Source: a virus. Taken from it: DNA of 64,000 nt. The notes beneath the pieces are model-generated. The model was not told where the DNA came from and made no database searches. It was given only the letters and a program-made list of their open reading frames with translations. Numbering within the stretch: position 1 is the first letter of the stretch; every line of letters starts with the position of its first letter. Made by a program: the position numbers and the translations under genes. Positions 40,275 through 60,029 of this stretch are shown here, one piece after another. The stretch covers positions 1-64,000 of the IMG/VR virus record IMGVR_UViG_3300023184_000109; one strand, given 5' to 3'.

Positions 40275-41417
40275 ATGAGCAACTTCTATTGTGCAGCCCC
40301 CTGGCGTGGGCTGCACATCAATCCCCGTGGTGATGTCAAAACATGCTGTGCTGGCAACCCCAACATGTTGGGCAACCTCAACAGTCAAAGTATAGAACAA
40401 ATACTCAACAGCCGACTAATGGCCGAAATACGCACTGACTTGGCACATGGACAAGCACATAGCTACTGCTCTAACTGTGTACAGGCTGAAAGATTTGGTG
40501 CAGACAGTGAACGGCAGTGGCACAACAATGTCAACCCTGATTTTGATTATGTCACTGCTGGTGACCAATACCACTATCCGGTTATTGTAGATGTTCGTTG
40601 GAACACCACATGCAATTTCAGTTGCAACTATTGCGATCCCAGTGCCAGTAGTAAATGGGCACAGTTAAAACAAGTACCATTCAAGTCAGGCTCAAGACCC
40701 TACTATGAACAAGTATGTGATTTTATTGAACAACATTACGAACACATACATGAAGTGGCCTTGGTGGGTGGTGAGCCGTTGTTGCTGCCAGAAAACGAAC
40801 GACTGCTGGATGTTATACCAGACACGGCTATTGTTACGCTGATCACAAACTTGAATGTTGACTTGCAGAGCAATAAGATATTTCGCAAACTTGCACAACG
40901 TAAACGGGTGGGATGGAGCATGAGCTTTGATAACATAGATCAACGTTTTGAATATGTGCGCTATGGCGGATCTTGGACAATGTTACAAGAGAATTTAAAG
41001 ACCATACAAGGTCTAATGCAGTCACAAGGACAATGGGGAGGTGTGCATGCGGTGTACAGCATTTACAATGCCACCAGACTGTGTGAGTTCAGACAGTTTG
41101 TTGAATCAGCTGGTGCCACAGTGCTATGGCAAAATTTGTTTCAGCCCAAGTACCTTGATCCATTTTTGCATGCGCCTGCTGTGGCTCAATTGGCTGCTGC
41201 AGAAATTAGACATTTCTACACACTAGGTATTGCTACAGACGCAGAACGCCAGTTTTTTGATCAGGCTTTGAGTAAATACAATTCTATTGAGACTGCTCAA
41301 CCAGACATTGTTGAACAATTCAAAAAACACATACGTAACATTGAAACACAGTATCATCCCAGCACCGCCGGGCAGTTTCAACAACTATGGCCTGAACTGG
41401 CAGAAAGTATAAAATGA
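40275..41417 (+). CDS. Radical SAM protein, twitch/SPASM-like
   Basis: The 380-aa protein has C113-x3-C117-x2-C120 (CNFSCNYC) for the catalytic [4Fe-4S] cluster. LVGGEPLL gives the GGE motif for SAM. An N-terminal half-SPASM segment (FYCAAPWRGLHINPRGDVKT then CC, and YCSNC near residue 75) probably binds an auxiliary cluster. Twitch-type enzymes modify peptides, proteins or small molecules through the 5'-deoxyadenosyl radical. The substrate is unknown. It lies directly before gp17, overlapping it by 4 nt (ATGA), so it is expressed with the packaging motor. Confidence 0.85.
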   Translation: MSNFYCAAPWRGLHINPRGDVKTCCAGNPNMLGNLNSQSIEQILNSRLMAEIRTDLAHGQAHSYCSNCVQAERFGADSERQWHNNVNPDFDYVTAGDQYHYPVIVDVRWNTTCNFSCNYCDPSASSKWAQLKQVPFKSGSRPYYEQVCDFIEQHYEHIHEVALVGGEPLLLPENERLLDVIPDTAIVTLITNLNVDLQSNKIFRKLAQRKRVGWSMSFDNIDQRFEYVRYGGSWTMLQENLKTIQGLMQSQGQWGGVHAVYSIYNATRLCEFRQFVESAGATVLWQNLFQPKYLDPFLHAPAVAQLAAAEIRHFYTLGIATDAERQFFDQALSKYNSIETAQPDIVEQFKKHIRNIETQYHPSTAGQFQQLWPELAESIK

Positions 41418-43003
41418 TTGCACCCCCGCCAACTAAGAATTTAGAAACGGTGCTAGTAAAAGCACCACACCGCAAAGAAGTATACACTGAACAAGAACTA
41501 ATTGAATTTGCAAGATGTGCAGATCCAGTGACTGGACCACTGTACTTCATGGATAATTTTTTCTACATCCAGCACCCCACACGCGGCAAGATGTTGTATC
41601 ATCCGTTTGACTACCAAAAGCGATTGATTGCCACGTATCACGAGTATAGATATTCAATATCGCTAATGCCTCGACAAACAGGCAAGTCGACCAGTGCCGC
41701 AGGTTATTTGTTGTGGTATGCCATGTTTGTTCCTGACAGTACCATTCTAGTGGCCGCACACAAATACACAGGTGCACAGGAGATCATGCAACGTATTAGA
41801 TACGCATACGAACTGTGCCCTAATCATATCAGAGCAGGTGCCACCAGCTACAACAAAAACAGTTTGGAATTTGAAAATGGATCACGTATTGTTGCACAGA
41901 CCACAACTGAAACCACTGGACGGGGTATGAGTATTTCACTCCTGTACGCCGACGAATTTGCGTTTGTGCGACCCACCATTGCTCGAGAGTTTTGGACTAG
42001 TATCTCGCCCACCCTGGCCACGGGTGGTAAGGCCATTATCACAAGTACTCCCAACTCAGACGAAGATCAATTTGCGTACCTATGGAAAGGTGCCAACAAG
42101 ACTCAAGACGAACATGGTAATACCACTGAATTAGGCATAAATGGATTCCGCGCATTTAGAAGCAACTGGCGTGAACATCCAGACCGTGATGAAAAGTGGG
42201 GACTAGAGCAACTAGCACAACTGGGCGAAGATCGATTCCGACGTGAAATGGAATGCGAGTTTGTTATCAATGATGAAACACTAATTGCGCCTACCAAACT
42301 GCTGGACCTTGAAGGTGTAGAACCCAATCGCCGTACAGGACAGGTACGCTGGTACAAAACTCCTGTCAAAGATAAGATATATATTGTGGCATTAGACCCT
42401 AGCCTGGGCACTGGAGGCGATCCTAGTGCTATACAAGTGTTTGAAGCAGACACTACAGAGCAAGTGGCTGAGTGGCGTCACAACAAATCAGACATTCCCA
42501 CACAGGTCAAACTATTGGCTGACATTGTCAATGAGTTGTATGAAATTACCAAAGATGATAAAAAGATTTATTACAGTGTAGAAAACAACACCATTGGTGA
42601 AGCAGCCTTGATATCCATAAACGAGTATGGTGAAGAAAACATCCGGGGCTACTTCCTTAGCGATAACTCAGTGACAGGTACCACAGGACGTAGATTCCGC
42701 AAAGGATTTAACACCACAAACAAAGCCAAACTCACAGCTTGCAACAAGTTCAAAATTCTTGTGGAATCTGGGCGCATGAAGCTGTACAGCAGGCCACTAA
42801 TTTCTGAACTCAAAACTTTTGTTGCACACGGGGGCAGCTATGCTGCCAAGCCCGGAGAAACTGATGACCTTGTCATGGGATCACTGTTGGCGGTGCGCAT
42901 GCTCATGATGTTGCAGACTTATCATGCAGAATTAGACACACAAATGAAAGATCACGGCGATAACATCATTGAACCAATGCCGTTCATATCAATGCTGCGC
43001 TAA
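41414..43003 (+). CDS. 17: Large terminase gp17
   Basis: The 529-aa packaging motor has Walker A MPRQTGKST (residues 85-93), Walker B LLYADEF (Asp-Glu about 180-181) and the coupling motif IITSTPN near 206. Its C-terminal RNase H-like nuclease has acidic residues near 327 (ALDPSLGTGGDPS), 390 (SVENNTIGEA) and 483-484 (ETDDLVMG). It translocates DNA into the prohead and cuts the concatemer. It is shorter than T4 gp17 (610 aa). The stop overlaps a late promoter motif. Confidence 0.97.
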   Translation: MIAPPPTKNLETVLVKAPHRKEVYTEQELIEFARCADPVTGPLYFMDNFFYIQHPTRGKMLYHPFDYQKRLIATYHEYRYSISLMPRQTGKSTSAAGYLLWYAMFVPDSTILVAAHKYTGAQEIMQRIRYAYELCPNHIRAGATSYNKNSLEFENGSRIVAQTTTETTGRGMSISLLYADEFAFVRPTIAREFWTSISPTLATGGKAIITSTPNSDEDQFAYLWKGANKTQDEHGNTTELGINGFRAFRSNWREHPDRDEKWGLEQLAQLGEDRFRREMECEFVINDETLIAPTKLLDLEGVEPNRRTGQVRWYKTPVKDKIYIVALDPSLGTGGDPSAIQVFEADTTEQVAEWRHNKSDIPTQVKLLADIVNELYEITKDDKKIYYSVENNTIGEAALISINEYGEENIRGYFLSDNSVTGTTGRRFRKGFNTTNKAKLTACNKFKILVESGRMKLYSRPLISELKTFVAHGGSYAAKPGETDDLVMGSLLAVRMLMMLQTYHAELDTQMKDHGDNIIEPMPFISMLR

Positions 43004-46993: not shown

Positions 46994-48049
46994 ATGGGAA
47001 AACCATTTGACGTAAGCAAGTTCCGCAAGGACATTACCAAAAGCATCGAAGGCCTCAGCATTGGATTTAATGATCCAACAGATTGGATTAGCACAGGCAA
47101 CTTTGCCTTGAACTATCTCATCTCAGGAGATTTCAATCGAGGCATTCCACTGGGCAAGATCACAGTGTTTGCCGGTGAATCTGGTGCAGGCAAGAGTTAT
47201 ATCTGTTCAGGCAACATTGTGAAGAATGCACAAGATCAAGGTATTTTTGTTATCTTGGTTGATACAGAAAATGCATTGGATGAGACATGGCTACATGCAC
47301 TGGGTGTAGACACTGGTGCAGATAAGTTGCTCAAGCTGAACATGAGCATGATTGATGACGTGGCCAAGGCAATTTCGACATTCATGATTGACTACAAAGC
47401 GTTGCCAGACGGCGAGCGCATGAAGGTGCTATGGGTGATTGACTCATTGGGCATGTTGTTGACACCAACTGATGTAAATCAATTTGAAGCAGGAGACATG
47501 AAAGGTGACATGGGTCGCAAGCCCAAGGCACTCACATCATTGGTGCGTAACTCAGTCAACATGTTTGGTGGTTACAATGTTGGAATGGTCTGTACAAATC
47601 ATACATACGCAAGTCAAGACATGTTTGACCCAGATGACAAGATCTCAGGTGGCCAAGGTTTTATCTATGCGTCAAGTATTGTTGTGGCCATGAAGAAAAT
47701 GAAACTGAAAGAGGACGAGGATGGCAACAAGATCTCCGAAGTCATGGGCATACGTGCTGGTTGTAAAGTAATGAAAACTCGTTATGCAAAACCATTCGAA
47801 GGCATGCAGGTCAAAATTCCCTACGAAACAGGTATGAATCCCTACAGTGGCCTGACTGATCTTGCAGAGAAAAAAGGCATGCTCAAGAAAGAAGGCAATC
47901 GTCTGGTGTTTGTCACCAGCGAAGGTGAAATAATTAAACAATTCCGCAAGGCCTGGGAAGCAAACGAAGACGGGTGCTTGGACAAAGTCATGACAGATTT
48001 TAAGAATATCAAAACAGAGATAAGTATCGCTGACCCTACAGAAGAGTAA
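46994..48049 (+). CDS. uvsX: Recombinase UvsX (RecA-like)
   Basis: The 351-aa protein has Walker A GESGAGKS at residues 61-68, Walker B VLWVIDSLGML near 145-153 and the DVNQFEAGDMKGDMGRKPKA loop of the UvsX family. TGNFALNYLISGDFNRGIPL matches the T4 N-terminal core. It forms filaments on gp32-coated ssDNA and carries out strand invasion for replication and repair. It is slightly shorter than T4 UvsX (391 aa). No promoter is seen close upstream, so it depends on partial read-through past the hairpin or on a distant promoter. Confidence 0.95.
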   Translation: MGKPFDVSKFRKDITKSIEGLSIGFNDPTDWISTGNFALNYLISGDFNRGIPLGKITVFAGESGAGKSYICSGNIVKNAQDQGIFVILVDTENALDETWLHALGVDTGADKLLKLNMSMIDDVAKAISTFMIDYKALPDGERMKVLWVIDSLGMLLTPTDVNQFEAGDMKGDMGRKPKALTSLVRNSVNMFGGYNVGMVCTNHTYASQDMFDPDDKISGGQGFIYASSIVVAMKKMKLKEDEDGNKISEVMGIRAGCKVMKTRYAKPFEGMQVKIPYETGMNPYSGLTDLAEKKGMLKKEGNRLVFVTSEGEIIKQFRKAWEANEDGCLDKVMTDFKNIKTEISIADPTEE

Positions 48050-48062
48050 CATGTAGTAACAC

Positions 48063-48575
48063 ATGAATCATTTACGATTTGAATTTTCAGCAACTTATTG
48101 TAATGCATGGCCCAAGTTAAGATTTTATATTGATGGGGATTTGTATCATGATTACCATTTTGAAAAAGAAGTAGGAATAGTCACGTTGCCTGTTGATCTA
48201 TTAGATGGTTCTCATCAGATAGAAATTGAACTATATGATAAAACGGACCATGACACTATAGTGGAAAATGATAAAATCATAAAAGATCAAACAGTAACTC
48301 TTAATACCATGTACCTGGATGACGTATTGTTGCCTGAATTATTTTTGTACCGCGGTAGGTACGAGCATTCTCCAAATAATATTGCGTTGACCTGGGGAAT
48401 TCCGGGGAAATGGAGTTTTAATTTTGATACACCCATTGTGACCTGGGCACTACAAATTAAACATATGAATCAAGTTGATGCAGACACCACCATGGTGTCT
48501 ACGTTCTCATTTCAAAAAAATAAAAAATTATTAAATCTGTTGGATTTGTTGGAGCAAGAATTACTAGATGTCTAA
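48063..48575 (+). CDS. Beta-sandwich-like protein, unknown (radical SAM neighbour)
   Basis: The 170-aa protein has the look of a carbohydrate-binding or lectin-like beta sandwich: LRFEFSATYCNAWPKLRFYI, then DLLDGSHQIEIELYDKTDHD, then IVTWALQIKHM. No catalytic residues can be named. It lies directly before the B12-type radical SAM gene and overlaps it by 8 nt. The block 48063-50058 is visibly richer in A/T than uvsX before it. The ATG has no clear ribosome site. Confidence 0.62.
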   Translation: MNHLRFEFSATYCNAWPKLRFYIDGDLYHDYHFEKEVGIVTLPVDLLDGSHQIEIELYDKTDHDTIVENDKIIKDQTVTLNTMYLDDVLLPELFLYRGRYEHSPNNIALTWGIPGKWSFNFDTPIVTWALQIKHMNQVDADTTMVSTFSFQKNKKLLNLLDLLEQELLDV

Positions 48576-50058
48576 ATTCACGCAAGCAGTTATAATTTCT
48601 ACTGGACAAGTTGAAATTAACAGGCCGCCTCCAGGTCTGGGATTTCTTGCAGGTATATGTGATAGTAGTGATTTGCCTTATGAAGCATTTGATTTAAATG
48701 CTTTTGTTCTTGAGCAAGTGGGAAATGATAAATGGATTGAACTGTATCATTACACATCATTAAATGACATTGAAGATGCTGGTTTATTAAACCAGATTGA
48801 TCACATACTAGATTTGTTTGTCACAGGTATCAAAACAATAAATCCTGATCTAGTGTTGATAACAGTTTTAACTCATTGGCAAAAGTTTTGGTGTGAAAAA
48901 TTATTAAAAAAAATAAAAGTATTTGACATTAATGCAACTGTTGTGGCTGGCGGCCCGGGTATATCAGTGTATCACACTGCCACTAGTACATTTGGAAAAT
49001 ATCTGTGCAATCATGATTTATTAGACTACTATGTGCTTGGAGAAGGTGAGGTAGTGTTAACTAATTTTTTAAAAGGTCAATATGATCTAGGAGTAAATTC
49101 CAAGACTGATCTTGTTGAAACTTGGGCAATGCAAATAGATAACTTAGATACAAATCCGCTGCCCTCATATAAAAAGATCGATGTTAATTATTACAAATCA
49201 TCTCTGGGGACTGGAACTATTTCAATAACTGGCAGTAGAGGCTGTGTTCGTCGTTGTACTTTCTGTGATGTGGGCAATATTTGGAAAAAATTTAGATTTA
49301 GAAGTGCAAGCAACATTGTAAAAGAAATAGAAAAACATTATTTAGAAACTGGACATACTGATTTTGCATTCACTGACAGTTTAATAAACGGGTCTTTAAA
49401 AAATTTCATTGGGTTCATGGAAGAATTAATTGAGTTACAACAGACACATCCGGATCTAAAAAACATCACGTATCTTGGACAATTTATAATTAGGCCACGG
49501 GCACAGCACCCTGAATATATGTTTCAATTGATGAAACAAAGTGGATTCAGCAATGTCATAGTTGGAATAGAAACTGGCAGTGACACTGTAAGATTCCACA
49601 TGAAAAAAAAGTTCACTAATGAAGATATTGATTACCATTTAGAAATGTGCGAGAAATACAAATTAGGAAACACATTTCTTTTCATGGTAGGATATCCTAC
49701 AGAAACGTTGCAAGATTTTGATGATACATTAAATATGGTGCGCAAATATCAAAAATATTTGTTGAGTGGGACTTTGATAGATGTTGGTGAAGCGTTACCA
49801 GTTACACTTTTGAAAAATACACCGTTGCATTCGTTGGCAGGAGAACTAGGGATTGACACAAACGATGAGTATCATAATATTTATTGGTTGTCTAAAGAAA
49901 ATCCTGACCTAACTCTTAAAGAGAGATGGCGAAGGTATATTACGTTTCAAAGAGAGTTAATTTTGTTAGGCTATCCTAGATCAGGTGATTTAGAAGTAAT
50001 GCTGGCACAACATCTTACCAAGATTAAAAATTTTAAGGATTTAAATTATGTCAACTAA
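48568..50058 (+). CDS. B12-binding-type radical SAM protein
   Basis: The 496-aa protein has an N-terminal Rossmann-like domain of the cobalamin-binding class (INRPPPGLGFLAGICDSSDL, VVAGGPGISVY, YYVLGEGE). A radical SAM core follows with C226-x3-C230-x2-C233 (GCVRRCTFCDV), then FSNVIVGIETGSD and a FLFMVGYPTET strand. Such enzymes often methylate or rearrange unactivated carbons. The usual D-x-H-x2-G of cobalamin binding is not obvious, so B12 use is uncertain. The substrate is unknown; a polyketide-like, peptide or glycan target is equally open. Confidence 0.83.
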   Translation: MSKFTQAVIISTGQVEINRPPPGLGFLAGICDSSDLPYEAFDLNAFVLEQVGNDKWIELYHYTSLNDIEDAGLLNQIDHILDLFVTGIKTINPDLVLITVLTHWQKFWCEKLLKKIKVFDINATVVAGGPGISVYHTATSTFGKYLCNHDLLDYYVLGEGEVVLTNFLKGQYDLGVNSKTDLVETWAMQIDNLDTNPLPSYKKIDVNYYKSSLGTGTISITGSRGCVRRCTFCDVGNIWKKFRFRSASNIVKEIEKHYLETGHTDFAFTDSLINGSLKNFIGFMEELIELQQTHPDLKNITYLGQFIIRPRAQHPEYMFQLMKQSGFSNVIVGIETGSDTVRFHMKKKFTNEDIDYHLEMCEKYKLGNTFLFMVGYPTETLQDFDDTLNMVRKYQKYLLSGTLIDVGEALPVTLLKNTPLHSLAGELGIDTNDEYHNIYWLSKENPDLTLKERWRRYITFQRELILLGYPRSGDLEVMLAQHLTKIKNFKDLNYVN

Positions 50059-50311
50059 TGTTGCAAGTGAAATTTGGGGCGAACTAAAAAGATACGTCAA
50101 TGTGGTAGATCGTATAGATGCAGCCGAAAGCATTGTGTCTATCCTGATTGATCACGATCATGATGTTGAAGAAATTCGAAACGCCTTCAAAGGTGATTCA
50201 GACATCAAGAAAGCCCTGACTGCATACCTGGACAATGACAAGGATTATGCAGAAGAGGACGAGGAAGAGCCAGACGAAGAAGATAACTATAATCAAGAAG
50301 ATGATTATTGA
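50048..50311 (+). CDS. Small acidic protein with disordered tail
   Basis: The 87-aa protein has a helical domain (VASEIWGELKRYVNVVDRID, then SIVSILIDHDHDVEEIRNAF) followed by a 25-residue tail almost wholly of Asp and Glu (AEEDEEEPDEEDNYNQEDDY). I recognise related short proteins from T4-like aquatic phages but not a function. The acidic tail could mimic DNA or contact RNA polymerase or a recombination protein. It overlaps the upstream radical SAM gene by 11 nt and the downstream one by 1 nt. Confidence 0.68.
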   Translation: MSTNVASEIWGELKRYVNVVDRIDAAESIVSILIDHDHDVEEIRNAFKGDSDIKKALTAYLDNDKDYAEEDEEEPDEEDNYNQEDDY

Positions 50312-51486
50312 TGGAAAGAAATTACTATTGCCGGCAAAAATTTCGAGCGTTGGCAATTGACCCAGAGAAAAAAACCACGTATAATTGCTATACTGCACAG
50401 TCACAACCAATAAACTTTGAGTGGTTAAAACAAAATCCTGGGCAACTGTTCAATACTGATATCAATGTCAGTGAACGTGAAATGATGTTGAATAACACAC
50501 GCAACCCCAGTTGTGAACAAAGTTGTTGGGTACCCGAAGATCAAGGTATGATCAGCACAAGAATAATTGATGTTGGCAATGTAAAAACTCATGCAAATCC
50601 ACGCGGCACAGTTGAAACTTTGAATTTTGTAACTGGTAGTAATTGTAATCTAACATGCTCTTATTGTTGTAAAGAATTTAGCACTGCTTGGAGTAACGAT
50701 TGTGAAAAAAATGGTGAATATCAGGACCTGGGCAAAGATGCTGAAAGATATCAGTATTCTAAAATTGATCAGATATTAAAAAAAGTTTCTCAAGCTAAAA
50801 AGTTCAATATGTCACACTACCAAATGTTACTGGATGAAGTGTCGCTATGCGCTGACAATTTGTCATCGTTCGGAATCAGTGGTGGGGAACCGTTGTTGCA
50901 CAATCGCTTTTTAGATATTCTACAATTAACACAACATGTACCACAAATAAAAATATACACAGGTCTAGGGGTCAACATCAAAAGATTTGAAACACTACTG
51001 GACAAAATTAAAGACTACAAAAACATTGTGGTTGCTGTGAGCATGGAGAATGTTGGTGCATTACATGAGTTTAATAGGTACGGCACCAAATGGACGGACG
51101 TGGTAACAAAACTTGATTTGCTAAAGCAAAGCAACGTCAACACAATATTTTCTTCGACACTGAGTAATCTGAGTATTTTTGGATTTGCAGAGTTTTACAA
51201 TCAATTTAAATCTTATCACATAAGGTCAGACGTGGTTCATACACCTTCGTTCATGCCACTGTACGTTATTGATGACGCCAGCAAACAATGCATAGCCAAT
51301 GAACTTGCCAACACCAACTTAGACTCACGTGATGACATTATAAAAAGCCTCAGCACTGTGCCCAGTCGCGAACAACGGGTGCAATTACAAAATTTTTTAC
51401 GGCAATTTATTGCCCGACGATCTGATTTAAGTATAGATGTATTTCCAAAATCTTTTCAAACCTGGGTAACTGAAAATGTGGTATAG
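50311..51486 (+). CDS. Radical SAM protein, twitch/SPASM-like (second)
   Basis: The 391-aa protein has C112-x3-C116-x2-C119 (CNLTCSYC), then FGISGGEPLLH for SAM binding. A Cys-bearing N-terminal segment (YYCRQKFRALAID, NPSCEQSCW) resembles half-SPASM auxiliary cluster sites. It is of the same broad type as the enzyme before gp17 but not closely similar. ATG 50311 overlaps the preceding TGA. Its end overlaps uvsY by 11 nt, so it is locked in the recombination operon. Confidence 0.84.
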   Translation: MERNYYCRQKFRALAIDPEKKTTYNCYTAQSQPINFEWLKQNPGQLFNTDINVSEREMMLNNTRNPSCEQSCWVPEDQGMISTRIIDVGNVKTHANPRGTVETLNFVTGSNCNLTCSYCCKEFSTAWSNDCEKNGEYQDLGKDAERYQYSKIDQILKKVSQAKKFNMSHYQMLLDEVSLCADNLSSFGISGGEPLLHNRFLDILQLTQHVPQIKIYTGLGVNIKRFETLLDKIKDYKNIVVAVSMENVGALHEFNRYGTKWTDVVTKLDLLKQSNVNTIFSSTLSNLSIFGFAEFYNQFKSYHIRSDVVHTPSFMPLYVIDDASKQCIANELANTNLDSRDDIIKSLSTVPSREQRVQLQNFLRQFIARRSDLSIDVFPKSFQTWVTENVV

Positions 51487-51928
51487 TAAAGTTGTAGCAG
51501 ATCTTGGTAACATTCCTGACTTCATTGCACATTTTGAATCAGAACTTACTGATGCCAAGCGTGATTGCAAAATTGGTGGACTAGTAGAGAAAAACATTAC
51601 GGCCTTGCCAGGCATAACTGAGCACCGATTCAATCAGTTACAAGAGATTGAAGCTGTGTTGAACTTTCTCAACATTCAACTGCGCAAGATACGCACCAAA
51701 CACTTTAAAAAATACCTGGAAGGTTATGCCCGTGCGCTCACAGCACGTGATGCTGAAAAGTATGTGGACGGCGAAGAAGAAGTTGTGGACTTTGAAACCA
51801 TCATCAATGAAGTTGCGCTGTTGCGCAATCGTTGGCTGGGCATCATGAAGGGCCTGGATACTAAACAATGGCAAATGGGGCACGTGGTAAGATTACGTAC
51901 GGCAGGCATGGAAGATATCACGGTATAA
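51476..51928 (+). CDS. uvsY: Recombination mediator UvsY
   Basis: The 150-aa helical protein matches the UvsY layout: LGNIPDFIAHFESELTDAKR, KIGGLVEKNITALPGITEHR and the basic LNIQLRKIRTKHFKKYLEGY. It ends with VVDFETIINEVALLRNRWLG. UvsY loads UvsX on gp32-coated ssDNA. The length is close to T4 (137 aa). It overlaps the radical SAM gene upstream by 11 nt. Confidence 0.92.
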   Translation: MWYSKVVADLGNIPDFIAHFESELTDAKRDCKIGGLVEKNITALPGITEHRFNQLQEIEAVLNFLNIQLRKIRTKHFKKYLEGYARALTARDAEKYVDGEEEVVDFETIINEVALLRNRWLGIMKGLDTKQWQMGHVVRLRTAGMEDITV

Positions 51929-52044: not shown

Positions 52045-52563
52045 ATGGTAGGAATATACAAAGAACTTTTGCCTAAATACAATGTAGTGCATGACTTTAT
52101 CACCAAATATGGTCCATGCAGTGTTGTAGATTGGGGGTGTGCAAATGGATTTCTTCTCAACCGCTTGGAACAAGATTTCTCCAGTATTCAAACACTGGGA
52201 GGCTATGATCCTGGCAATCCTGATTATATGGATGTGCCTGCTGGCACCTATGATTGTCTTGTCAGCTGTGATGTGATAGAACATTTTGAACCTGATGAAT
52301 TGGACGCATCATTAAAACTCATGCAAAGCAAGTTTCAACGTTCTGCTTTTTTGATCATTGCCTGTTATCCTGCAAAGAAAACGCTAGAAGATGGTCGCAA
52401 TGCTCATTTGATTGTGGAAAATTGTGCATGGTGGATGGACAAGATTCAGCGACAATTTGATCAATGCCACGTCACCTGGTGGGAAGCTGTGGATTTTGGC
52501 GGCAAGCCACACAAAGGGATTCAACCTAAACCTGAACTGCGTGTAGTACTAGAGAAACGCTGA
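52045..52563 (+). CDS. SAM-dependent methyltransferase (class I)
   Basis: The 172-aa protein has the SAM-binding motif SVVDWGCANGFLL near residue 28, GGYDPGNPDYMDV for motif II and CDVIEHFEPDEL for motif III/IV. It is short for a class I enzyme and has no clear target domain; a small-molecule or sugar target is likely given the island context. It converges with and overlaps by 15 nt the next methyltransferase gene. Confidence 0.76.
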   Translation: MVGIYKELLPKYNVVHDFITKYGPCSVVDWGCANGFLLNRLEQDFSSIQTLGGYDPGNPDYMDVPAGTYDCLVSCDVIEHFEPDELDASLKLMQSKFQRSAFLIIACYPAKKTLEDGRNAHLIVENCAWWMDKIQRQFDQCHVTWWEAVDFGGKPHKGIQPKPELRVVLEKR

Positions 52564-53076
52564 GTTATCAAAAGGCTCATGACCTGAGCGCCAAATCAAA
52601 TGTATTTTTTCGTGTGACAGTTTTGCTTGCCACCACTCATAATTGTGTACACACATAAATGGTTTTTTGCTTTTGGTATGAGTTATTTCCTGCAAGCCCA
52701 CCACGCAGATTTTATTGCAACGACTCAACATAAGTTCGATCACTGTGTCTATGTCTGAATCAGGTATGAATGGCAACACATCCAAGCATATTACCAAGTC
52801 CCAGGTACCGTCAGGTAACTCGGCATGTTGCTCATACGCAGGATCATGCAATGCGTAACTTTCAATACCAATCAACTTTGCAAAATTGTTTTTGCCTGTA
52901 AGGTATTGCAATCCTTTGCCGCAGCCGTAGTCCAACATAGACACACAGTGATGTTGTTGCGTGATTGTTTTTAATTGATTAACGTATTGGTAACTGCCGT
53001 AGCCGGCCCAGTTCACACTTTTTTGTTGAAATGTCTGACTTCGCTGTAGAGCACTGTAATATGCATCAGTAAACAT
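52549..53076 (-). CDS. SAM-dependent methyltransferase (class I)
   Basis: The 175-aa protein has SMLDYGCGKGLQYLTG as SAM motif I, a following IGIESYALHDPAYE and LVICLDVLPFIPDSDI. It shares the layout of the convergent gene at 52045, including HNYEWWQAKL near the end versus ENCAWWMDKI, so the two are related. It is translated with the sulfotransferase upstream (11-nt overlap) from the late promoter at 53681. Confidence 0.76.
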   Translation of the reverse strand: MFTDAYYSALQRSQTFQQKSVNWAGYGSYQYVNQLKTITQQHHCVSMLDYGCGKGLQYLTGKNNFAKLIGIESYALHDPAYEQHAELPDGTWDLVICLDVLPFIPDSDIDTVIELMLSRCNKICVVGLQEITHTKSKKPFMCVHNYEWWQAKLSHEKIHLIWRSGHEPFDNSAFL

Positions 53077-53671
53077 TCTTTGTTAGATCTTTCGAGTATT
53101 TAAAAAATTCAAAATCTTCACGAAACAGTTCGCACACAAATTCTTGCGAAGTCTTGGTGTAGTATTGTTGCAGTGTTTTTTGGGTGGTGTTGATGGTTTC
53201 CAATGGTTTACGAACACCAGTTATGATTTGCAGTGTGAGCCACTCTCGCCGAACATTTTCTAATTTTAACACATAGTTGATTTTGGCCGGCGCATTGGTA
53301 ATGTAACTGACCTGCGTGTGGTCAAATTGTGGTACCAACTTGCTGTAGTGCAACACCCAGTTTTCAAATCCAGTGTTGTATAGAGCTTGAGTACTTTGAT
53401 GTAATAATTCTTTTGCTTCTAATGGATCATCTACTGGTTTGGGTAGTGGATGTTTGGCAAGAAAGTGATCAGCTTTGTTTTTTGAAAACTCATAGTATGA
53501 AATTACCCGTTGATAAGGATTTCTACAGGTTGCAAACCACCAGTCTGCTGTGGTATAATCAACTTCGCTGAATCGGGCATGCCCAGTTGACACAACATCA
53601 ACTTGGTTGTCTTGGAACCATTTTTTAACAGATGATCCGCCATTTTTTGGTATGTGTATGAACCCCAGCAT
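53066..53671 (-). CDS. Sulfotransferase family protein
   Basis: The 201-aa protein begins MLGFIHIPKNGGSSVKKWF, the 5'-phosphosulfate loop (IPKNGGSS), and has ATCRNPYQRVISYYEF, the 3'-phosphate-binding motif, near residue 55. These are the two PAPS-binding signatures of carbohydrate sulfotransferases. It would transfer sulfate to a sugar. ATG 53671 is chosen over an upstream GTG because a TAAATA motif lies 4 nt before it. It diverges from the cytidylyltransferase-cupin gene. Confidence 0.83.
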   Translation of the reverse strand: MLGFIHIPKNGGSSVKKWFQDNQVDVVSTGHARFSEVDYTTADWWFATCRNPYQRVISYYEFSKNKADHFLAKHPLPKPVDDPLEAKELLHQSTQALYNTGFENWVLHYSKLVPQFDHTQVSYITNAPAKINYVLKLENVRREWLTLQIITGVRKPLETINTTQKTLQQYYTKTSQEFVCELFREDFEFFKYSKDLTKNVY

Positions 53672-53675
53672 ATAG

Positions 53676-53681
53676 TATTTA
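53676..53681 (-). promoter_or_regulatory. Late promoter motif of the sulfotransferase operon, leaderless arrangement
   Basis: On the minus strand TAAATA is followed by CTAT and the ATG at 53671. It is back to back with the plus-strand motif at 53700. Confidence 0.68.
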
Positions 53682-53697
53682 TTGCATAAACTACGTA

Positions 53698-53705
53698 GAT
53701 AAATA
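53698..53705 (+). promoter_or_regulatory. Late promoter motif of the cytidylyltransferase operon, leaderless arrangement
   Basis: GATAAATA is followed by CCCAC and the ATG at 53711. The 5-nt gap places the predicted +1 on the start codon. Confidence 0.7.
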
Positions 53706-53710
53706 CCCAC

Positions 53711-54475
53711 ATGAAAATTGTAATTGTCACCGGCGGATTTGACCCGCTACATTCTGGGCACATTGCCTATTTTGAAGCAGCCAAGGCCTTGGGCGACAGG
53801 CTGGTGGTTGGTATCAACAGTGATGAGTGGCTCACACGCAAAAAAGGTCGACCCTTTATGCCTGCTGCCGAACGCAGAGCCATTATTGAAAATCTGCGCA
53901 TGGTAGATCGTGTGATCGAATTCAATGATGATGATGACACTGCCATAGAAGCCATACGTGTTGCCCGCACATACTACACCATGCCCAGAGCCCGATTTAT
54001 ATTTGCCAATGGCGGTGACCGCACGCCAGACAACATTCCTGAAATGGTGTTTGATGATGTGGATTTTGCGTTTGGTGTGGGTGGAGAAAACAAAATGAAT
54101 TCAAGTTCATGGATACTTACTGAATGGAAAACACCCCGGACTGATCGTGCCTGGGGATACTATCGTGTGTTGCATGAAGTAGGTGCCAACACCAAACTCA
54201 AAGAACTCACTGTGATGCCTGGCCAACGACTGAGCATGCAACGTCATGATCAACGTGCAGAGTTTTGGTTTGTTGCTGAAGGTGAAGCCACAGTGTACAC
54301 CATAGATGATGCCAGTACTGATCAAGAAATCAAGTGTGAATTAACTGTGCATGAACACACATTTATCCGAGTAAATGAGTGGCATCAGTTATGCAATGAA
54401 ACTGATCAACCACTAAAGTTGATTGAAATACAATACGGCGACCGCTGTGTTGAGGAAGATATAGAGCGCCGATGA
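53711..54475 (+). CDS. Cytidylyltransferase-like / cupin fusion
   Basis: The N-terminal half has GGFDPLHSGHIAYFEAAKAL (HSGH at residues 14-17) and LVVGINSDEW, as in nucleotidyltransferases of the glycerol-3-phosphate cytidylyltransferase/HldE-C group. From about residue 150 a cupin follows (GYYRVLHEVGANTKLKELTV, then MSMQRHDQRAEFWFVAEGEA as pattern), resembling type II phosphomannose isomerase cupins. The likely role is activation of a sugar or polyol phosphate with a built-in isomerase or binding domain. It heads a four-gene plus-strand operon in the glycan island. Confidence 0.8.
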   Translation: MKIVIVTGGFDPLHSGHIAYFEAAKALGDRLVVGINSDEWLTRKKGRPFMPAAERRAIIENLRMVDRVIEFNDDDDTAIEAIRVARTYYTMPRARFIFANGGDRTPDNIPEMVFDDVDFAFGVGGENKMNSSSWILTEWKTPRTDRAWGYYRVLHEVGANTKLKELTVMPGQRLSMQRHDQRAEFWFVAEGEATVYTIDDASTDQEIKCELTVHEHTFIRVNEWHQLCNETDQPLKLIEIQYGDRCVEEDIERR

Positions 54476-55164
54476 AACCTATTCCTGTGTTTGTAGGATA
54501 TGATCCTAGAGAAGCTGTGGCATATCATGTGTGCGTTAATTCAATTATTAGGCATGCCAGTCAACCAGTTGCCATCATACCAGTGGCACTGAACTTGTTT
54601 CGAGATTATGATGAAACACACACTGACGGCAGCAATCAATTTATCTACAGTCGTTTTCTTGTACCGCACTTGATGGACTACTCAGGATGGGCCATATTCA
54701 TTGATGGCGACATGATTTTGCGTGGAGACATTGTAGAACTATGGGAATTGCAAGACTCGTTCAAAGACGTCATGGTAGTCAAACATGATTACAAAACACG
54801 CATGCCTGTCAAGTACCTTGGCTCAAAGAACGAAGACTATCCTCGCAAGAACTGGTCAAGTGTTATACTGTGGAATTGCAACAGTTATCCCAATCGCAAG
54901 TTGACACCAGAATTTGTGCAAAAGTCAACAGGTGCAGAACTACATAGATTTTCATGGATAGATGATGAACGTATTGGTGAGCTACCCCCAGAGTGGAACT
55001 GGTTGGATGTTGAATACGAGTGGAACCCACAGGCAAAATTAGTACACTACACTTTGGGCACTCCGTGCTTTCATGAGTTTGCTGATGCTGGTGATTTTGC
55101 AGAAGAATGGCACCAAGAAAGATTACTAACCAATTATTGCGAGCAAAAAATACAAAATGGATGA
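54472..55164 (+). CDS. Glycosyltransferase (GT-A, GT8-like)
   Basis: The 230-aa protein opens MKPIPVFVGYDPREAVAYHV and has FIDGDMIL with D78-G-D80 as the metal-binding DxD. SSVILWNCNSYPN and a late LVHYTLGTPCFHEFADAGDF follow. This fits GT-A enzymes of the GT8-like type that use a nucleotide sugar with Mn. The start overlaps the preceding stop by 4 nt (ATGA). Confidence 0.82.
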   Translation: MKPIPVFVGYDPREAVAYHVCVNSIIRHASQPVAIIPVALNLFRDYDETHTDGSNQFIYSRFLVPHLMDYSGWAIFIDGDMILRGDIVELWELQDSFKDVMVVKHDYKTRMPVKYLGSKNEDYPRKNWSSVILWNCNSYPNRKLTPEFVQKSTGAELHRFSWIDDERIGELPPEWNWLDVEYEWNPQAKLVHYTLGTPCFHEFADAGDFAEEWHQERLLTNYCEQKIQNG

Positions 55165-56116
55165 AGAACTAACATCACTGCCGCGGCATGAACTTGAAAT
55201 GGTTCCTCCTGAAATGGCACAATTATTTAGAGACATTATAAAATATCGTGTGGATCCAGAAGGGGCATATTACGGTATTGGTGTTGAGCAAATATTTGAA
55301 CAAATTCGAGCACTTGACAACGGAGTTGTTCACGGTATTGACAGTGAATTTAGATATGAGGAAAAAGGAAAAATGTTTGATCCTGTTATACAGAGTCTCA
55401 CCTTGGGAGCAGGTGGTCAGATAACCACCTGGAGCAAAAGCGAACCATCAATGACGCCAGTTATCTTGCGTGGCATAACCAAACGTAAACAAATGGATTC
55501 TTGTAGACAAAATAACAGAGACTTTTATTATATTGACACTGGCTACTTGGGTAATGGTAAAAAGAAAACTTACCACAGAATCACAAAAAACGATGTGCAA
55601 AATTTTGGTCCTGTAATAGATCGCCCTGGTGATAGATTTGAGCGAACTGGTGTCAGGCCAGCCAAATGCCGAACTGACGGCAGGCGCATATTGCTTGCAC
55701 CCCCCAGCCAAAAGTTATTGAATTTGTACGACATTGATCTGGAACAATGGTTAGAAACCACGCTGGCAGAAATTGCACAGAACACGGATCGTCCTGTTGT
55801 GGTTCGACGCAAACCTGGACGCACTGCTAGGACCAGTGACGACAGCATGGAAGCGGCGTTGAGTCAAGACATCTATTGTTTGATAACATTCAGCAGCATT
55901 GCAGCCGGAGAAGCATTGATATACGGCAAGCCCGCAATCACACTAGGGCCAAATGCGGCTGCATCGTTGTGCAGTAACACATTGAAAGAAATTGAATATA
56001 TTAAAAAGCCTGACATAGATCAAGTCCGTGCTTGGTGTAGACACATAGCCTATTGTCAATTTACTGAGCCAGAAATGCGTGACGGCACAGCATGGAGAAT
56101 ATTACAAGGTGGTTGA
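55157..56116 (+). CDS. Capsule-synthesis-like protein (island paralogue 1)
   Basis: The 319-aa protein belongs to a family with five members here. It has PVILRGITKRKQMDSCRQNN, DFYYIDTGYLGN, YDIDLEQWLETTLAEIAQNT, RPVVVRRKPG and ITFSSIAAGEALIYGKPAIT, then HIAYCQFTEPEMRDGTA. The S-S-x-A-x-E-A...G-x-P motif is typical of GT-B Kdo/capsule transferases of the KpsC/KpsS type. The closest relative is the minus-strand gene at 58434. It probably transfers a sugar to a surface or virion glycan. It overlaps the preceding GT gene by 8 nt. Confidence 0.68.
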   Translation: MDEELTSLPRHELEMVPPEMAQLFRDIIKYRVDPEGAYYGIGVEQIFEQIRALDNGVVHGIDSEFRYEEKGKMFDPVIQSLTLGAGGQITTWSKSEPSMTPVILRGITKRKQMDSCRQNNRDFYYIDTGYLGNGKKKTYHRITKNDVQNFGPVIDRPGDRFERTGVRPAKCRTDGRRILLAPPSQKLLNLYDIDLEQWLETTLAEIAQNTDRPVVVRRKPGRTARTSDDSMEAALSQDIYCLITFSSIAAGEALIYGKPAITLGPNAAASLCSNTLKEIEYIKKPDIDQVRAWCRHIAYCQFTEPEMRDGTAWRILQGG

Positions 56117-57032
56117 TGTTGTTGTTTACGTCAGCTCAGTGGCCAATCCACAAAAGCATGCGAGAAAAATACAATGCTTGGAAAGTTTTGCTGAAGGCGT
56201 TAAGGCCGCGGGACACACAGTTACCCTGGAATGGGAACACCGTTATACTCCCAGTCGGTTAGCAGTGATGCTGGGATGGGCCACTACCAACACTGGTGGC
56301 CGTAACATCACATTGCGAAAACAAATCATTGCTGAACAACGTGCGCAGGGCAACCACACCATGTGCATAGATGCGTCATGCTGGAAATACCTTGACAACA
56401 ATGGCACTTACTTGCGTTACAGCCTTGACGGACCTTTTTATGACCGTGCCGAGTATGCCAACAAGAACAGCAACAATGGTAAATGGCAAGAGATCAGTTC
56501 AGTTCTGGGCATACAATTAAAACCCCCGCAACACAATGATGGGCACATCTTGATTGGCATGCAACGTGATGGTGGGTTTGCAATGAAAGCACTAGATCCC
56601 ATGTCATGGTTGTGGGACAAGATTCAAGCCATTAGAAAAGTTACTGGCAGACCCATACACATACGTCCACATCCAGGACAATACAACATGGCAGACTTTG
56701 TCCGGTACACCGGTAGACACGTTAGACGATTGAACACTGTGGTGATACATCCTGAACAAAGCAGACTGATTGACAACCTGCAAGGTGCGCACAGTGCAGT
56801 GTTCTTCAACAGTTCAGCAAGTGTGGCTGCTGTGTGTGAAGGTGTACCTGTGTTTGTGGATGATGCCAGTTGTGTGGCATGGTCTGTTGCCAACAAGGAC
56901 ATCGCAAAAATTGAAACGCCTGATACATTTGATAAGAACCAATGGATATGGGACCTGGCTTCAGCACACTGGAGTGATGCAGATGCACGAGCAGGGCGCA
57001 TCTATCAAAAGTTCTTACCGTATTTGGTATAA
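56079..57032 (+). CDS. Capsule-synthesis-like protein (island paralogue 2)
   Basis: The 317-aa protein shows DVVVYVSSVANPQKHARKIQ at the first strand, TLRYSLDGPFYDRAEYANKN-like acceptor region, GRPIHIRPHPGQYNM with the RPHP loop, and HSAVFFNSSASVAAVCEGVP followed by VFVDDASCVAWSVAN. The S-S-A-S...E-G-V-P stretch is the nucleotide-sugar site of GT-B capsule enzymes. ATG 56079 overlaps the previous gene by 38 nt; an in-frame GTG at 56109 just before the first strand is an equally possible start. The 3' end overlaps the convergent paralogue by 18 nt. Confidence 0.66.
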   Translation: MTAQHGEYYKVVDVVVYVSSVANPQKHARKIQCLESFAEGVKAAGHTVTLEWEHRYTPSRLAVMLGWATTNTGGRNITLRKQIIAEQRAQGNHTMCIDASCWKYLDNNGTYLRYSLDGPFYDRAEYANKNSNNGKWQEISSVLGIQLKPPQHNDGHILIGMQRDGGFAMKALDPMSWLWDKIQAIRKVTGRPIHIRPHPGQYNMADFVRYTGRHVRRLNTVVIHPEQSRLIDNLQGAHSAVFFNSSASVAAVCEGVPVFVDDASCVAWSVANKDIAKIETPDTFDKNQWIWDLASAHWSDADARAGRIYQKFLPYLV

Positions 57033-57812
57033 TTCCACAAGCTCTGCAACATCACCATTGACAAACTCGTCAATGTGAAATTGACTCCATGCAATATGAT
57101 CCCACCAGTCTGCTCGGTCTGGATATGTGATGTTGGCCAAGTTATCTACACCGCCCATGAGCAATGTGGTAACTGATGCATCCACAGTGTATGCTGGTAC
57201 GCCCAACAACACTGCTTCTACACAGGCCATGGTACGTTCGCCCACAACAGCATGTGCCTTGACCAATTGATCTTGGTAGCGTTGAAATCTTGTTGCCTTG
57301 TTTCCAGCCTTGGGTCTCCATACTATGGGTCCGGACCAAGACTTTTTTATTGCTTTTTCAATTTCAGCACACCATTCGGGTGTGGTAATACCTCGACGTT
57401 GCAACAGTATTTCGTTTATGGGCATGGGCACCAACACATAATCACCTGTACGTTGTTGCCAGGTTTGTTGTGCAGGTGCAGGAAACAGTTTGGATCTGTT
57501 GTGAGGTCTGGGTCGCATGCGCATGTTATGATGGCCACAGTATGTTACTCTGCGTGTGGCCCGTCGAGGTGTATCCAATCCCCAATAACCATATTCAATT
57601 TCAATCCAGGGACGACCGGCAGCGATCCATTCCTTCAGCGGGCTCCACCAAGGTGCAAAGTGACTGACAACTAACACATGGTCTTGGGGTATTTGATGCA
57701 TGTGATCAAACGTTTTAAGTCCACGACGCTGCCAAGGACGCAATGACCATGACTCAAAGTCACCTTTGATGGCTGAACACCAAGCGTATTTTATTGCCAA
57801 CCCATGATCCAA
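57015..57812 (-). CDS. Capsule-synthesis-like protein (island paralogue 3)
   Basis: The 265-aa protein has DHVLVVSHFAPWWSPLKEWI, RPWIEIEYGYWG, a PIVWRPKAGNKATRFQ loop and AVVGERTMACVEAVLLGVPA followed by YTVDASVTTLL. It ends with DHIAWSQFHIDEFVNGDVAE, the C-terminal signature shared with the gene at 58434. It is the last gene of a four-gene minus-strand operon and overlaps FkbM-like gene upstream by 22 nt. Confidence 0.66.
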   Translation of the reverse strand: MDHGLAIKYAWCSAIKGDFESWSLRPWQRRGLKTFDHMHQIPQDHVLVVSHFAPWWSPLKEWIAAGRPWIEIEYGYWGLDTPRRATRRVTYCGHHNMRMRPRPHNRSKLFPAPAQQTWQQRTGDYVLVPMPINEILLQRRGITTPEWCAEIEKAIKKSWSGPIVWRPKAGNKATRFQRYQDQLVKAHAVVGERTMACVEAVLLGVPAYTVDASVTTLLMGGVDNLANITYPDRADWWDHIAWSQFHIDEFVNGDVAELVELYQIR

Positions 57813-58441
57813 TCATCCTTGACTTGATCCAGTCGCACCATGCCCCATGACCGCATGAGTTCAATGGCAGCATGTTGTCCATATTGATCACTGTAAGCAT
57901 CATGTGGTTTTTGTTCTACCACAACAACAGGTCTACATCGCTTTATGGTTTGCTCAGCACCTTGAAGTATGCGATACTCGTAGCCTTCGCAATCCATTTT
58001 GATGTAGTCTACTTCGTCCAAATCCAAGTCATCCAGTCTATACACTTGAGTTTCGCCAGTGCCCAAGGTAGCAGGATCAATGTGCGTGTGTCCGGTGTTG
58101 CCTTCTGTAATGATCATTGTGGCGGTTGTGCGTTTGTCACCCAGTGCAAAGTCTTTGACTTGTAAGTTATCAGCAACAACATTACGAATCAGGCATTCTC
58201 TAAACATGGCCACAGGCTCAAATGCCAGCACAGTGCGAAAGTTTTGGCATAGACTGCGACTCCACAATCCCACATTGGCACCTATGTCCAAGGCAACACC
58301 GCGCCGCTTGGTATGTGTCATGCTGCGATCGCGCACTTGATATTGGTACTCAGCAGGTCCGCCTTTGTCTGTGCTTTTCTTCAGCATCTTTGGAAAATGT
58401 GATTCGGCGTCTGGGAACCACCACCCTTGGTATTCATGCAC
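57791..58441 (-). CDS. FkbM-family methyltransferase
   Basis: The 216-aa protein has GVALDIGANVGLWSRSLCQN (SAM motif, D52 to G58), TVLAFEPVAMFRECLIRNV, and the FkbM-type block VYRLDDLDLDEVDYIKMDCE followed by GYEYRILQGAEQTIKRCRPV. FkbM enzymes O-methylate sugars and related hydroxyls and are common in surface-polysaccharide clusters. It overlaps the genes on both sides in the minus-strand operon. Confidence 0.87.
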   Translation of the reverse strand: MHEYQGWWFPDAESHFPKMLKKSTDKGGPAEYQYQVRDRSMTHTKRRGVALDIGANVGLWSRSLCQNFRTVLAFEPVAMFRECLIRNVVADNLQVKDFALGDKRTTATMIITEGNTGHTHIDPATLGTGETQVYRLDDLDLDEVDYIKMDCEGYEYRILQGAEQTIKRCRPVVVVEQKPHDAYSDQYGQHAAIELMRSWGMVRLDQVKDDWIMGWQ

Positions 58442-59237
58442 TTAGTATCTCCTCTGTTTGTTTAAGTATTCGTTCGGCTGAGCCGTTTTTGAATTCGTCT
58501 ATGTGAAATTGAGCATAAGCCAAATGGTACGCCCACGCTAGTATCTGATCCTGATCTGGGAACCAAGGATTGTCAATCTTGCTCAAATCTAAATTGCTCA
58601 CAGGCCTTGCAGCATTGCACGGAGCCATGACAAACACAGGTGTGCCTGCTAGTATGGCTTCTGTGCCTGCAATACTATTGAATGTGACAACAGCATGTAC
58701 ATCGTCTAGGGCTTTTTCCACACGATTGATTTTTCTATCAGTACGACTGCGGTTGCGTTCACGTATGATGATGGGACGGTCGGTGTATTGCTTGATAGTG
58801 GCCACAGTTTCGGCCAACCATGTGTCCAAGTCTATGTCATAGAACTTGCAAGGCTTTTCATCAGGAGCCGCAATCAGTATTGCACTGCCTGGACGTCTGC
58901 GTGAAATTTCTAATCCCAGTCGATTCCAACGATCACTGGGACGAGGTATAACTTGATCATGTTGTAAGTTGTTGGGTACAATACGATGCCAATGTTTCCA
59001 CCCTTGTGGGTTTTTAAAACTGGGACGATTGCCTAGATATCCAGAGTCCATGTACCTAAACGGTCTATTATCTGCCCAACATTGTTTGATGATTTTGTGT
59101 TTCATGATACCACGCAACATCACGGGCTCAGTGCTGTCCTCGTAACGCCATGACTCCAAGGGAGTAGACTCAAGACCAAGTCCATGTGCGTACATATCGA
59201 TGTATTCGTCGTCACCGTTCTTGCTCAAAAATATCAT
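58434..59237 (-). CDS. Capsule-synthesis-like protein (island paralogue 4)
   Basis: The 267-aa protein aligns along its length with the plus-strand gene at 55157: PVMLRGIMKHKIIKQCWADN, RPFRYMDSGYLGNRPSFKNP, YDIDLDTWLAETVATIKQYT, RPIIIRERNRSRTDRKINRV and VVTFNSIAGTEAILAGTPVF. It ends AYHLAYAQFHIDEFKNGSAE. It lacks the first 60-70 residues of that relative. The two copies lie on opposite strands, which points to duplication with inversion. The start overlaps the upstream GT stop (ATGA). Confidence 0.68.
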   Translation of the reverse strand: MIFLSKNGDDEYIDMYAHGLGLESTPLESWRYEDSTEPVMLRGIMKHKIIKQCWADNRPFRYMDSGYLGNRPSFKNPQGWKHWHRIVPNNLQHDQVIPRPSDRWNRLGLEISRRRPGSAILIAAPDEKPCKFYDIDLDTWLAETVATIKQYTDRPIIIRERNRSRTDRKINRVEKALDDVHAVVTFNSIAGTEAILAGTPVFVMAPCNAARPVSNLDLSKIDNPWFPDQDQILAWAYHLAYAQFHIDEFKNGSAERILKQTEEILSA

Positions 59238-60016
59238 TGCCAGTACTTTTCAGTGCGTCGAACCACAAGGTCTTTGAGTTTGCTACGGCCATCATGCTTG
59301 CGTTTGCCTTTGAGGTGGTCGATGTATGCACCCCATTCACAGTTGATTAGCGGATGACCTTCGCCGTTGATCAAACCGGCTGACCAATTTAGTTCTGCAA
59401 GCCCGCTGCGAGCTTTGACTTGATCAAACACATAACTGTCATGCCATTCGGGCAACGTGAATATTCCGTTTTCGGCATCATCATACATGCGTTGAAATTC
59501 TGTTAAAAAGTTTTGCACAGCAGGTTCAGTCAAGTGCATGCCGTACAGGCCACATTCGGTAAACTTGTTGCTACGACCTGCGTAACACAGTTGTTTTGCG
59601 TCTGGAAAAAATTCGGCAATACGCGACACAGTGATTGGGGTGTGACACACCATGTCAGCGTCCATCCAAATCAACCATTCAGTGCCGCAGGTACGAGCCG
59701 CATGGAATATGGCATACACTTTGTGACTGAATCTCACAGCCTGCCATTTGTATGCTTTGCGTTCACTACCAGGCCCAATATCACCATTGGCCTTGGGCAC
59801 ATCTCGCCATTTGTTTTTGAATGCGACCAGTTCAGAGCTGACACTTTCTAAATTTAGCACTTGTAGATTGGGTGCAGTTTGCGTGACTTGACAACCTTCA
59901 GCATACACTTTCAGGGCAACCTCGCGTGGCCAGGTTCGTAAGAATGTGTCAATCATGCGAGAGCCATAAGTCTTGTAGCCTTCTGCATTAAATGTGGTAC
60001 ATACAGTATATTTCAT
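59234..60016 (-). CDS. Glycosyltransferase-like (GT-A)
   Basis: The 260-aa protein opens MKYTVCTTFNAEGYKTYGSR and has EWLIWMDADMVCHTP with D119-A-D121 as DxD. CYAGRSNKFTECGLYGMHLT and ELNWSAGLINGEGHPLINCE follow. It is the first gene of the minus-strand operon. ATG 60016 is chosen over 60043 because a TAAATA motif lies 5 nt before it. Confidence 0.74.
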   Translation of the reverse strand: MKYTVCTTFNAEGYKTYGSRMIDTFLRTWPREVALKVYAEGCQVTQTAPNLQVLNLESVSSELVAFKNKWRDVPKANGDIGPGSERKAYKWQAVRFSHKVYAIFHAARTCGTEWLIWMDADMVCHTPITVSRIAEFFPDAKQLCYAGRSNKFTECGLYGMHLTEPAVQNFLTEFQRMYDDAENGIFTLPEWHDSYVFDQVKARSGLAELNWSAGLINGEGHPLINCEWGAYIDHLKGKRKHDGRSKLKDLVVRRTEKYWQ

Positions 60017-60021
60017 AGACG

Positions 60022-60027
60022 TATTTA
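60022..60027 (-). promoter_or_regulatory. Late promoter motif of the minus-strand glycan operon, leaderless arrangement
   Basis: On the minus strand TAAATA is followed by CGTCT and the ATG at 60016. The 5-nt gap is the same as at 1327, 3055, 39456 and 53711. Confidence 0.68.
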
Positions 60028-60029
60028 CA

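What the first reader, a model, noticed from the sequence alone, without database searches (positions are those of the whole stretch)
48063..51486. Radical SAM cargo block inserted between uvsX and uvsY
Seen: a beta-sandwich protein, a B12-type radical SAM enzyme, an 87-aa protein with an Asp/Glu tail and a twitch-type radical SAM enzyme are chained by overlaps and lie between uvsX and uvsY. The first two genes look more A/T-rich than uvsX. The small acidic protein between two radical SAM enzymes could be a substrate peptide, a carrier or a recombination accessory. No radical SAM function is known in T4 recombination.
Basis: partly seen in the sequence, partly recalled or inferred. Interest (0 to 1): 0.72.

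Follow-up and report, generated by a model that had tools for sequence, protein, structure and literature searches.

The report
Swappable enzyme cassettes between phage recombination genes
The four-gene "block" between two phage DNA-recombination genes is really a conserved small acidic phage gene plus two separate, exchangeable sets of radical-chemistry enzyme genes that nearly identical phages swap, drop or move, so the acidic protein is probably not the enzymes' target.

Summary
The four genes are present at the stated coordinates and form an overlapping chain between uvsX and uvsY. They are not one block.

(1) The 87-aa acidic protein (C) is a core gene. A C-like ORF lies between uvsX and uvsY in 75 of 75 related viral loci holding both genes, and a homologue occurs in Sinorhizobium phage Phosso. 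Among 72 loci fetched with C itself and readable on both sides, 31 carry nothing else between uvsX, C and uvsY.

(2) The "beta-sandwich" gene A and the B12-type radical SAM gene B are an overlapping pair. Every A with readable downstream sequence is followed by B. A folds like a CBM60 carbohydrate-binding module. The pair also sits in other slots; one phage with a 99%-identical UvsY carries it between C and uvsY.

(3) The twitch radical SAM enzyme D occupies the C|uvsY slot in a large minority of relatives. D identity is uncorrelated with core identity (rho 0.02); phages with 97-99% identical UvsX/UvsY carry D proteins only 21-46% identical.

Best reading: swappable cargo (possibly glycan-modifying) at junctions of a conserved recombination operon, not recombination enzymes and not a RiPP system. 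C is an undescribed recombination-locus protein of unknown function.

The parts
46994..48049 (+). uvsX recombinase, conserved left flank
   Evidence: phrog_97 5e-66, RecA Pfam 1e-14
48063..48575 (+). A: 170-aa CBM60-like beta-sandwich with C-terminal helices; always followed by B
   Evidence: AF2 pLDDT 81 and Foldseek to CBM60; pairing
48568..50058 (+). B: B12-type radical SAM enzyme, CVRRCTFC
   Evidence: PF04055 9e-18, B12-binding 1e-4; family tree
50048..50311 (+). C: core 87-aa helical protein with acidic tail ending in an aromatic residue
   Evidence: 75/75 loci between uvsX and uvsY; model; tail statistics
50311..51486 (+). D: twitch-type radical SAM enzyme, swappable occupant of the C|uvsY slot (start moved from TTG 50308 to ATG 50311)
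   Evidence: N_Twi_rSAM 3e-47; slot statistics and allele decoupling
51476..51928 (+). uvsY recombination mediator, conserved right flank
   Evidence: phrog_231 5e-13; up to 99% identical in relatives

Best explanation
The region is a conserved recombination operon (ssb - uvsX - C - uvsY) whose gene junctions carry exchangeable cargo. Two independent cargo units sit here: the pair A-B in the uvsX|C junction and the single gene D in the C|uvsY junction. Shown: A-B and D are present, absent, in another slot or in another allele in phages with nearly identical flanking proteins, always in the operon's direction and with abutting or overlapping gene ends. Inferred: exchange is by homologous recombination through the conserved flanking genes, the phage's own UvsX/UvsY machinery being the likely agent. 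Inferred (about 0.4): A recognises a glycan (CBM60-like fold) and presents it to B, which does cobalamin-dependent radical chemistry (most likely a methylation), while D does a further radical step, altering a carbohydrate of the virion or host surface. C is not cargo: it is a small helical protein with an acidic, aromatic-tipped tail, encoded between uvsX and uvsY, and most likely (about 0.6) an accessory of that recombination machinery.
For: C in 75/75 loci; 31 of 72 C-centred loci have bare uvsX-C-uvsY; Phosso homologue. A-B pairing and its several positions; L182 carries A-B in C|uvsY although its UvsY is 99% identical to the window's. D slot 30/74 occupied, 29 by radical SAM genes; D identity decoupled from core identity, rho 0.02. 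Radical SAM density 0.47/kb in slots, 0.05/kb outside; cargo GC 0.37, core 0.45. CBM60 fold match of A. Surface-type gene cluster downstream. Radical SAM cassettes in the host-recognition cluster of pelagimyophages (PMC7029224).
Against: No substrate evidence for A, B or D. A has no sequence-level match to any CBM family, and calcium or sugar ligands were not tested. The B12-binding match of B is below Pfam's cut-off. Some D and core distances do agree (L031/L036), so part of the inheritance is vertical. Loci are partly redundant and the density figure used a model built from slot members.
Confidence: 0.7

Rival explanations
1. One reading: C is a peptide substrate or carrier modified by the flanking radical SAM enzymes (RiPP-like).
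For: In the window C lies between two radical SAM genes and is small and acidic.
Against: C occurs without them in 31 of 72 loci; A-B occurs without C next to it; swapped, unrelated D types sit beside nearly identical C proteins; C has no Cys and no leader-like architecture.
Confidence: 0.03
2. The enzymes take part in phage recombination or DNA repair together with UvsX, C and UvsY.
For: Position and overlapping ends within the recombination operon.
Against: Relatives with 97-99% identical UvsX/UvsY lack them or carry unrelated types; A-B and B relatives also lie elsewhere.
Confidence: 0.05
3. The cargo is anti-defence or host-takeover metabolism: the enzymes make or alter a small molecule or host target, and turnover follows changing hosts.
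For: Fast allele turnover at a fixed site; weak viperin-model match of D.
Against: The viperin match covers only the generic radical SAM core (29 bits, residues 105-210); A's lectin-like fold points elsewhere.
Confidence: 0.2
4. The enzymes modify nucleic acid, for instance phage DNA bases or tRNA.
For: Radical SAM enzymes do both in other systems (general knowledge); B shows weak similarity to MiaB/RimO models, as most of the superfamily does.
Against: Best matches of B are lipid, P-methyl and other small-molecule enzymes; A is CBM60-like.
Confidence: 0.12
5. The cargo is neutral and only hitch-hikes on homing-endonuclease activity at a conserved site.
For: L080 has a GIY-YIG/NUMOD3 gene in the uvsX|C slot. 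T4 segA lies next to uvsX and cuts it (PMC2988022).
Against: No endonuclease gene in the window block. Reading frames and FeS motifs are intact across alleles only 40-50% identical, and one enzyme class fills 29 of 30 occupied C|uvsY slots.
Confidence: 0.08

Closest known systems
Radical SAM gene cassettes in the host-recognition cluster of pelagimyophages (PMC7029224)
   Same: Radical SAM cassettes added or missing between similar T4-like phages, beside LPS-type genes
   Different: There they lie in the tail-fibre region; here they fill fixed junctions of the uvsX-C-uvsY operon
T4-like environmental virus with 12 radical SAM genes (TARA_ERS488813_N000010; PMC5332604)
   Same: Many radical SAM genes in one aquatic T4-like virus
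   Different: No positional pattern, A-B pair or C reported in the passage read
Free-standing homing endonuclease segA of T4, between uvsX and beta-gt (PMC2988022)
   Same: Extra gene at a uvsX boundary
   Different: An endonuclease that drives its own spread; no endonuclease is found in this block
CBM60 carbohydrate-binding modules (PDB 2xhh, 2xfd)
   Same: Predicted fold of A
   Different: 8-9% identity, separate small protein paired with an enzyme, extra C-terminal helices, ligand unknown
B12-type radical SAM families TIGR04072, PhpK, BchE
   Same: Domain order and best HMM matches of B
   Different: All far below family cut-offs (105 of 360 bits for the best)
Streptomyces phage SF3 B12-binding radical SAM protein
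   Same: Only annotated-phage match to B (25% over 65%)
   Different: Far relative; its neighbours were not examined

Membership tests
N_Twi_rSAM (NF033640), for D | Score over the curated cut-off (170 bits) | tested here: not met
   161.8 bits, E 3e-47, near full length
N_Twi_rSAM (NF033640), for D | CX3CX2C cluster motif | tested here: met
   CNLTCSYC in D
Cobalamin-dependent radical SAM enzymes, for B | Radical SAM core with CX3CX2C | tested here: met
   PF04055 65.5 bits, cut-off 29.5; CVRRCTFC
Cobalamin-dependent radical SAM enzymes, for B | B12-binding domain | tested here: inconclusive
   22.5 bits, cut-off 32.1 in B; a Bdellovibrionia relative passes with 35.8
Cobalamin-dependent radical SAM enzymes, for B | Cobalamin use | not testable with these tools
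   Needs protein
CBM60, for A | Fold | tested here: met
   Foldseek prob 1.00, E 8e-4, TM 0.65-0.70 by target
CBM60, for A | Sequence-profile match | tested here: not met
   No Pfam CBM hit, no PDB sequence hit
CBM60, for A | Calcium and sugar ligands | not tested
   Residue-level superposition not available
RiPP-type radical SAM system | Precursor peptide found together with its enzyme | tested here: not met
   C without any inserted neighbour in 31 of 72 loci; A-B without adjacent C
Prokaryotic viperin (pVip), for D | Full-length match | tested here: not met
   29 bits over residues 105-210 only
Homing-endonuclease insertion | Endonuclease gene within the inserted block | tested here: not met
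   No endonuclease family match in A-D; one relative (L080) has a GIY-YIG gene in the slot

The most novel reading that the evidence does not exclude
A-B is a new class of phage-encoded, glycan-guided cobalamin radical SAM module, in which a stand-alone CBM60-like lectin presents a surface carbohydrate to its enzyme. Phages switch such modules in and out of fixed slots in their recombination operon, while C is a new core recombination mediator that works with UvsX and UvsY through an acidic, aromatic-tipped tail.
Probability: 0.2. Interest if true: 0.8.

Novelty: new variant of a known kind. Interest (0 to 1): 0.5.

Why it matters
It corrects a plausible misreading and replaces it with two testable things. 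First, an undescribed gene sits between uvsX and uvsY in all 75 loci examined that hold both genes; T4-type recombination is well reconstituted in vitro, so its effect can be assayed directly. Second, radical SAM enzymes are exchanged as cassettes between nearly identical phages at fixed junctions of the recombination operon, and one of them always travels with a lectin-like partner. That gives a handle on what the many unexplained radical SAM genes of aquatic phages act on.

Tried and rejected
Scans of viral contigs with single B or D proteins gave nothing, and D, A and C have no match in annotated phages; reaching relatives needed uvsY and alignments. C against PDB sequences and folds: nothing; BFVD only uncharacterised phage proteins. 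PADLOC: weak core-only matches. RiPP reading rejected. Recombination role for the enzymes not supported. C is absent between uvsX and uvsY in CBB, XbC2, Kaldavass and Vibrio phage 2.275, so it is core to this group and Phosso, not to all Rak2-type phages. Assembly chimeras considered and judged unlikely: the same arrangements recur in separate contigs (e.g. L089-L091 and L093).

Full report
1. Observation. The four ORFs are at the stated coordinates, overlap in a chain, and lie between uvsX (46994-48049) and uvsY (51476-51928). B has the motif CVRRCTFC and a weak B12-binding domain. D has CNLTCSYC and the N-terminal-twitch type radical SAM family as best match, 161.8 bits against a cut-off of 170. 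GC falls from 0.44 in uvsX to 0.34 in A and B and 0.37 in D, and returns to 0.44 in uvsY. D is better started at ATG 50311: C's stop and D's start then form TGATG, the same one-base overlap that joins C to uvsY in relatives without D. The window is a 65.8 kb virus record. Its UvsX is about 59-66% identical to the best cultured relatives, jumbo phages such as CBB, GAP32, Atu_ph07 and Phosso.

2. C is core, not cargo. uvsY was used to fetch 80 viral loci. In 75 loci holding both uvsX and uvsY, C lies between them in 73 by tblastn, and in the two others (L064, L075) a 73-74 aa ORF with similar sequence and tail lies there. More distant loci have it too: L083, L084, L087, L089, L092, L094. Phosso has a homologue in the same place (hhalign prob 93, P 3e-7). 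CBB, XbC2, Kaldavass and Vibrio phage 2.275 have uvsX directly followed by uvsY. A separate scan with C found 498 relatives; of the kept loci 72 were readable on both sides: 31 have bare uvsX-C-uvsY, 36 have a radical SAM gene between C and uvsY, one has A-B, and none has the window's exact combination. The model of C is four helices plus a disordered tail. After residue 60 the mean net charge is about -15, and 81 of 83 sequences have an aromatic residue in the last four (DY, DWEN and similar). From general knowledge, acidic aromatic-tipped tails act as docking tips in phage and bacterial single-strand binding proteins; that is an analogy, not a test.

3. A and B are a pair. Every A with readable downstream sequence is followed by an overlapping or abutting B. 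In the B tree the 13 A-then-B rows (window included) form one starred set; L099 has the reverse order elsewhere in the tree. B relatives without A exist: 12 rows fixed in the ssb|uvsX slot form one group, and others lie elsewhere. So B-type enzymes can stand alone, while no lone A was seen. A-B usually lies in uvsX|C, but lies in C|uvsY in L182, about 3.8 kb downstream of uvsY in L083, and away from uvsX/uvsY in L095/L192 and L195/L196. L182 has a UvsY 99% identical to the window's.

4. A resembles a carbohydrate-binding module. From a 10-sequence alignment AF2 gives pLDDT 81. The top two PDB matches are CBM60 structures, E 8e-4 and 1.1e-3, prob 1.00, TM 0.65-0.70 by target length. The next hits are far weaker. 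There is no sequence-family match, so A is called CBM60-like only.

5. D is an independently swapped gene. The C|uvsY slot is occupied in 30 of 74 loci, 29 with a radical SAM gene. Among 28 loci with D, D identity does not follow core identity (Spearman 0.02, p 0.70; within the N_Twi type 0.15, p 0.16). Examples: window and L001, core 98.8%, D 45.8%; L046 and L047, core 97.8%, D 21.5% and of different types. Four of the closest relatives (L002, L003, L004, L007) have no D. A second small radical SAM pair occurs in uvsX|C in L008 and in C|uvsY in L023.

6. The slots as a whole. Radical SAM genes occur at 0.47 per kb in the slots against 0.05 per kb in flanking sequence; slot cargo GC is 0.37 and core GC 0.45. 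The model used was built from slot members and loci are partly redundant, so the ratio is indicative. All 112 slot ORFs run with the operon. One slot (L080) holds a GIY-YIG/NUMOD3 gene, recalling T4 segA beside uvsX (PMC2988022).

7. Mechanism. Shown: presence, absence, position and allele of the cargo vary independently of near-identical flanking proteins. Inferred: exchange by homologous recombination across the conserved flanks. Inferred with less confidence (about 0.4): the enzymes act on carbohydrate. The reasons are A's fold; the surface-type gene cluster downstream (methyltransferases, sulfotransferase, cytidylyltransferase-cupin, GT8, FkbM, GT2); the sugar-nucleotide type genes near A-B in L083; and the report of radical SAM cassettes in the host-recognition cluster of pelagimyophages (PMC7029224). 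A Bdellovibrionia genome carries two B-type genes and a D-like radical SAM gene as an operon, which hints that B and D types may work in one pathway.

8. Known or new. Cargo between T4-like core genes and radical SAM genes in aquatic T4-like phages are both known (PMC2993671, PMC7029224, PMC5332604). In the papers searched I found no report of fixed radical SAM slots in the recombination operon, of the A-B pair, or of C. That literature search was small and covers open-access papers only.

Noticed in passing
window 40275-41417: Third radical SAM gene (N-terminal SPASM/twitch plus radical SAM core) immediately upstream of and overlapping the terminase large-subunit gene 41414-43003; possibly another cargo slot.
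   Followed up: no
window 52045-60043: Surface-type gene cluster on both strands: two methyltransferases, sulfotransferase, cytidylyltransferase-cupin, GT8, FkbM methyltransferase and GT2-like genes.
   Followed up: partly
L080 5746-6468: GIY-YIG/NUMOD3 homing-endonuclease-like gene in the uvsX|C slot.
   Followed up: no
L008 5925-6927 and L023 3582-4500: Homologous two-gene unit (small radical SAM plus a 102-105 aa Cys-containing protein) in different slots in the two phages.
   Followed up: partly
L054 317-3531 and similar loci (L007, L008, L018, L066, L070, L073, L076): Recurrent gene set in the ssb|uvsX slot: about 210-219 aa unknown, radical SAM, SDR-type oxidoreductase, radical SAM.
   Followed up: no
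window 46994-48049 against L001-L008: UvsX comes in two allele classes (98-99% and 85-86% identical to the window's) among phages whose UvsY is 98-99% identical, so the core genes recombine too.
   Followed up: no
L165 5995-10069: Bdellovibrionia chromosome: two B12-type radical SAM genes and one further radical SAM gene in a row behind ftsE-ftsX-M23 peptidase-S41 protease genes.
   Followed up: no
L019, L101-L103, L107-L110, L114, L118, L124 (ssb|uvsX slot): A separate clade of B12-type radical SAM genes without A is fixed in the ssb|uvsX slot.
   Followed up: partly
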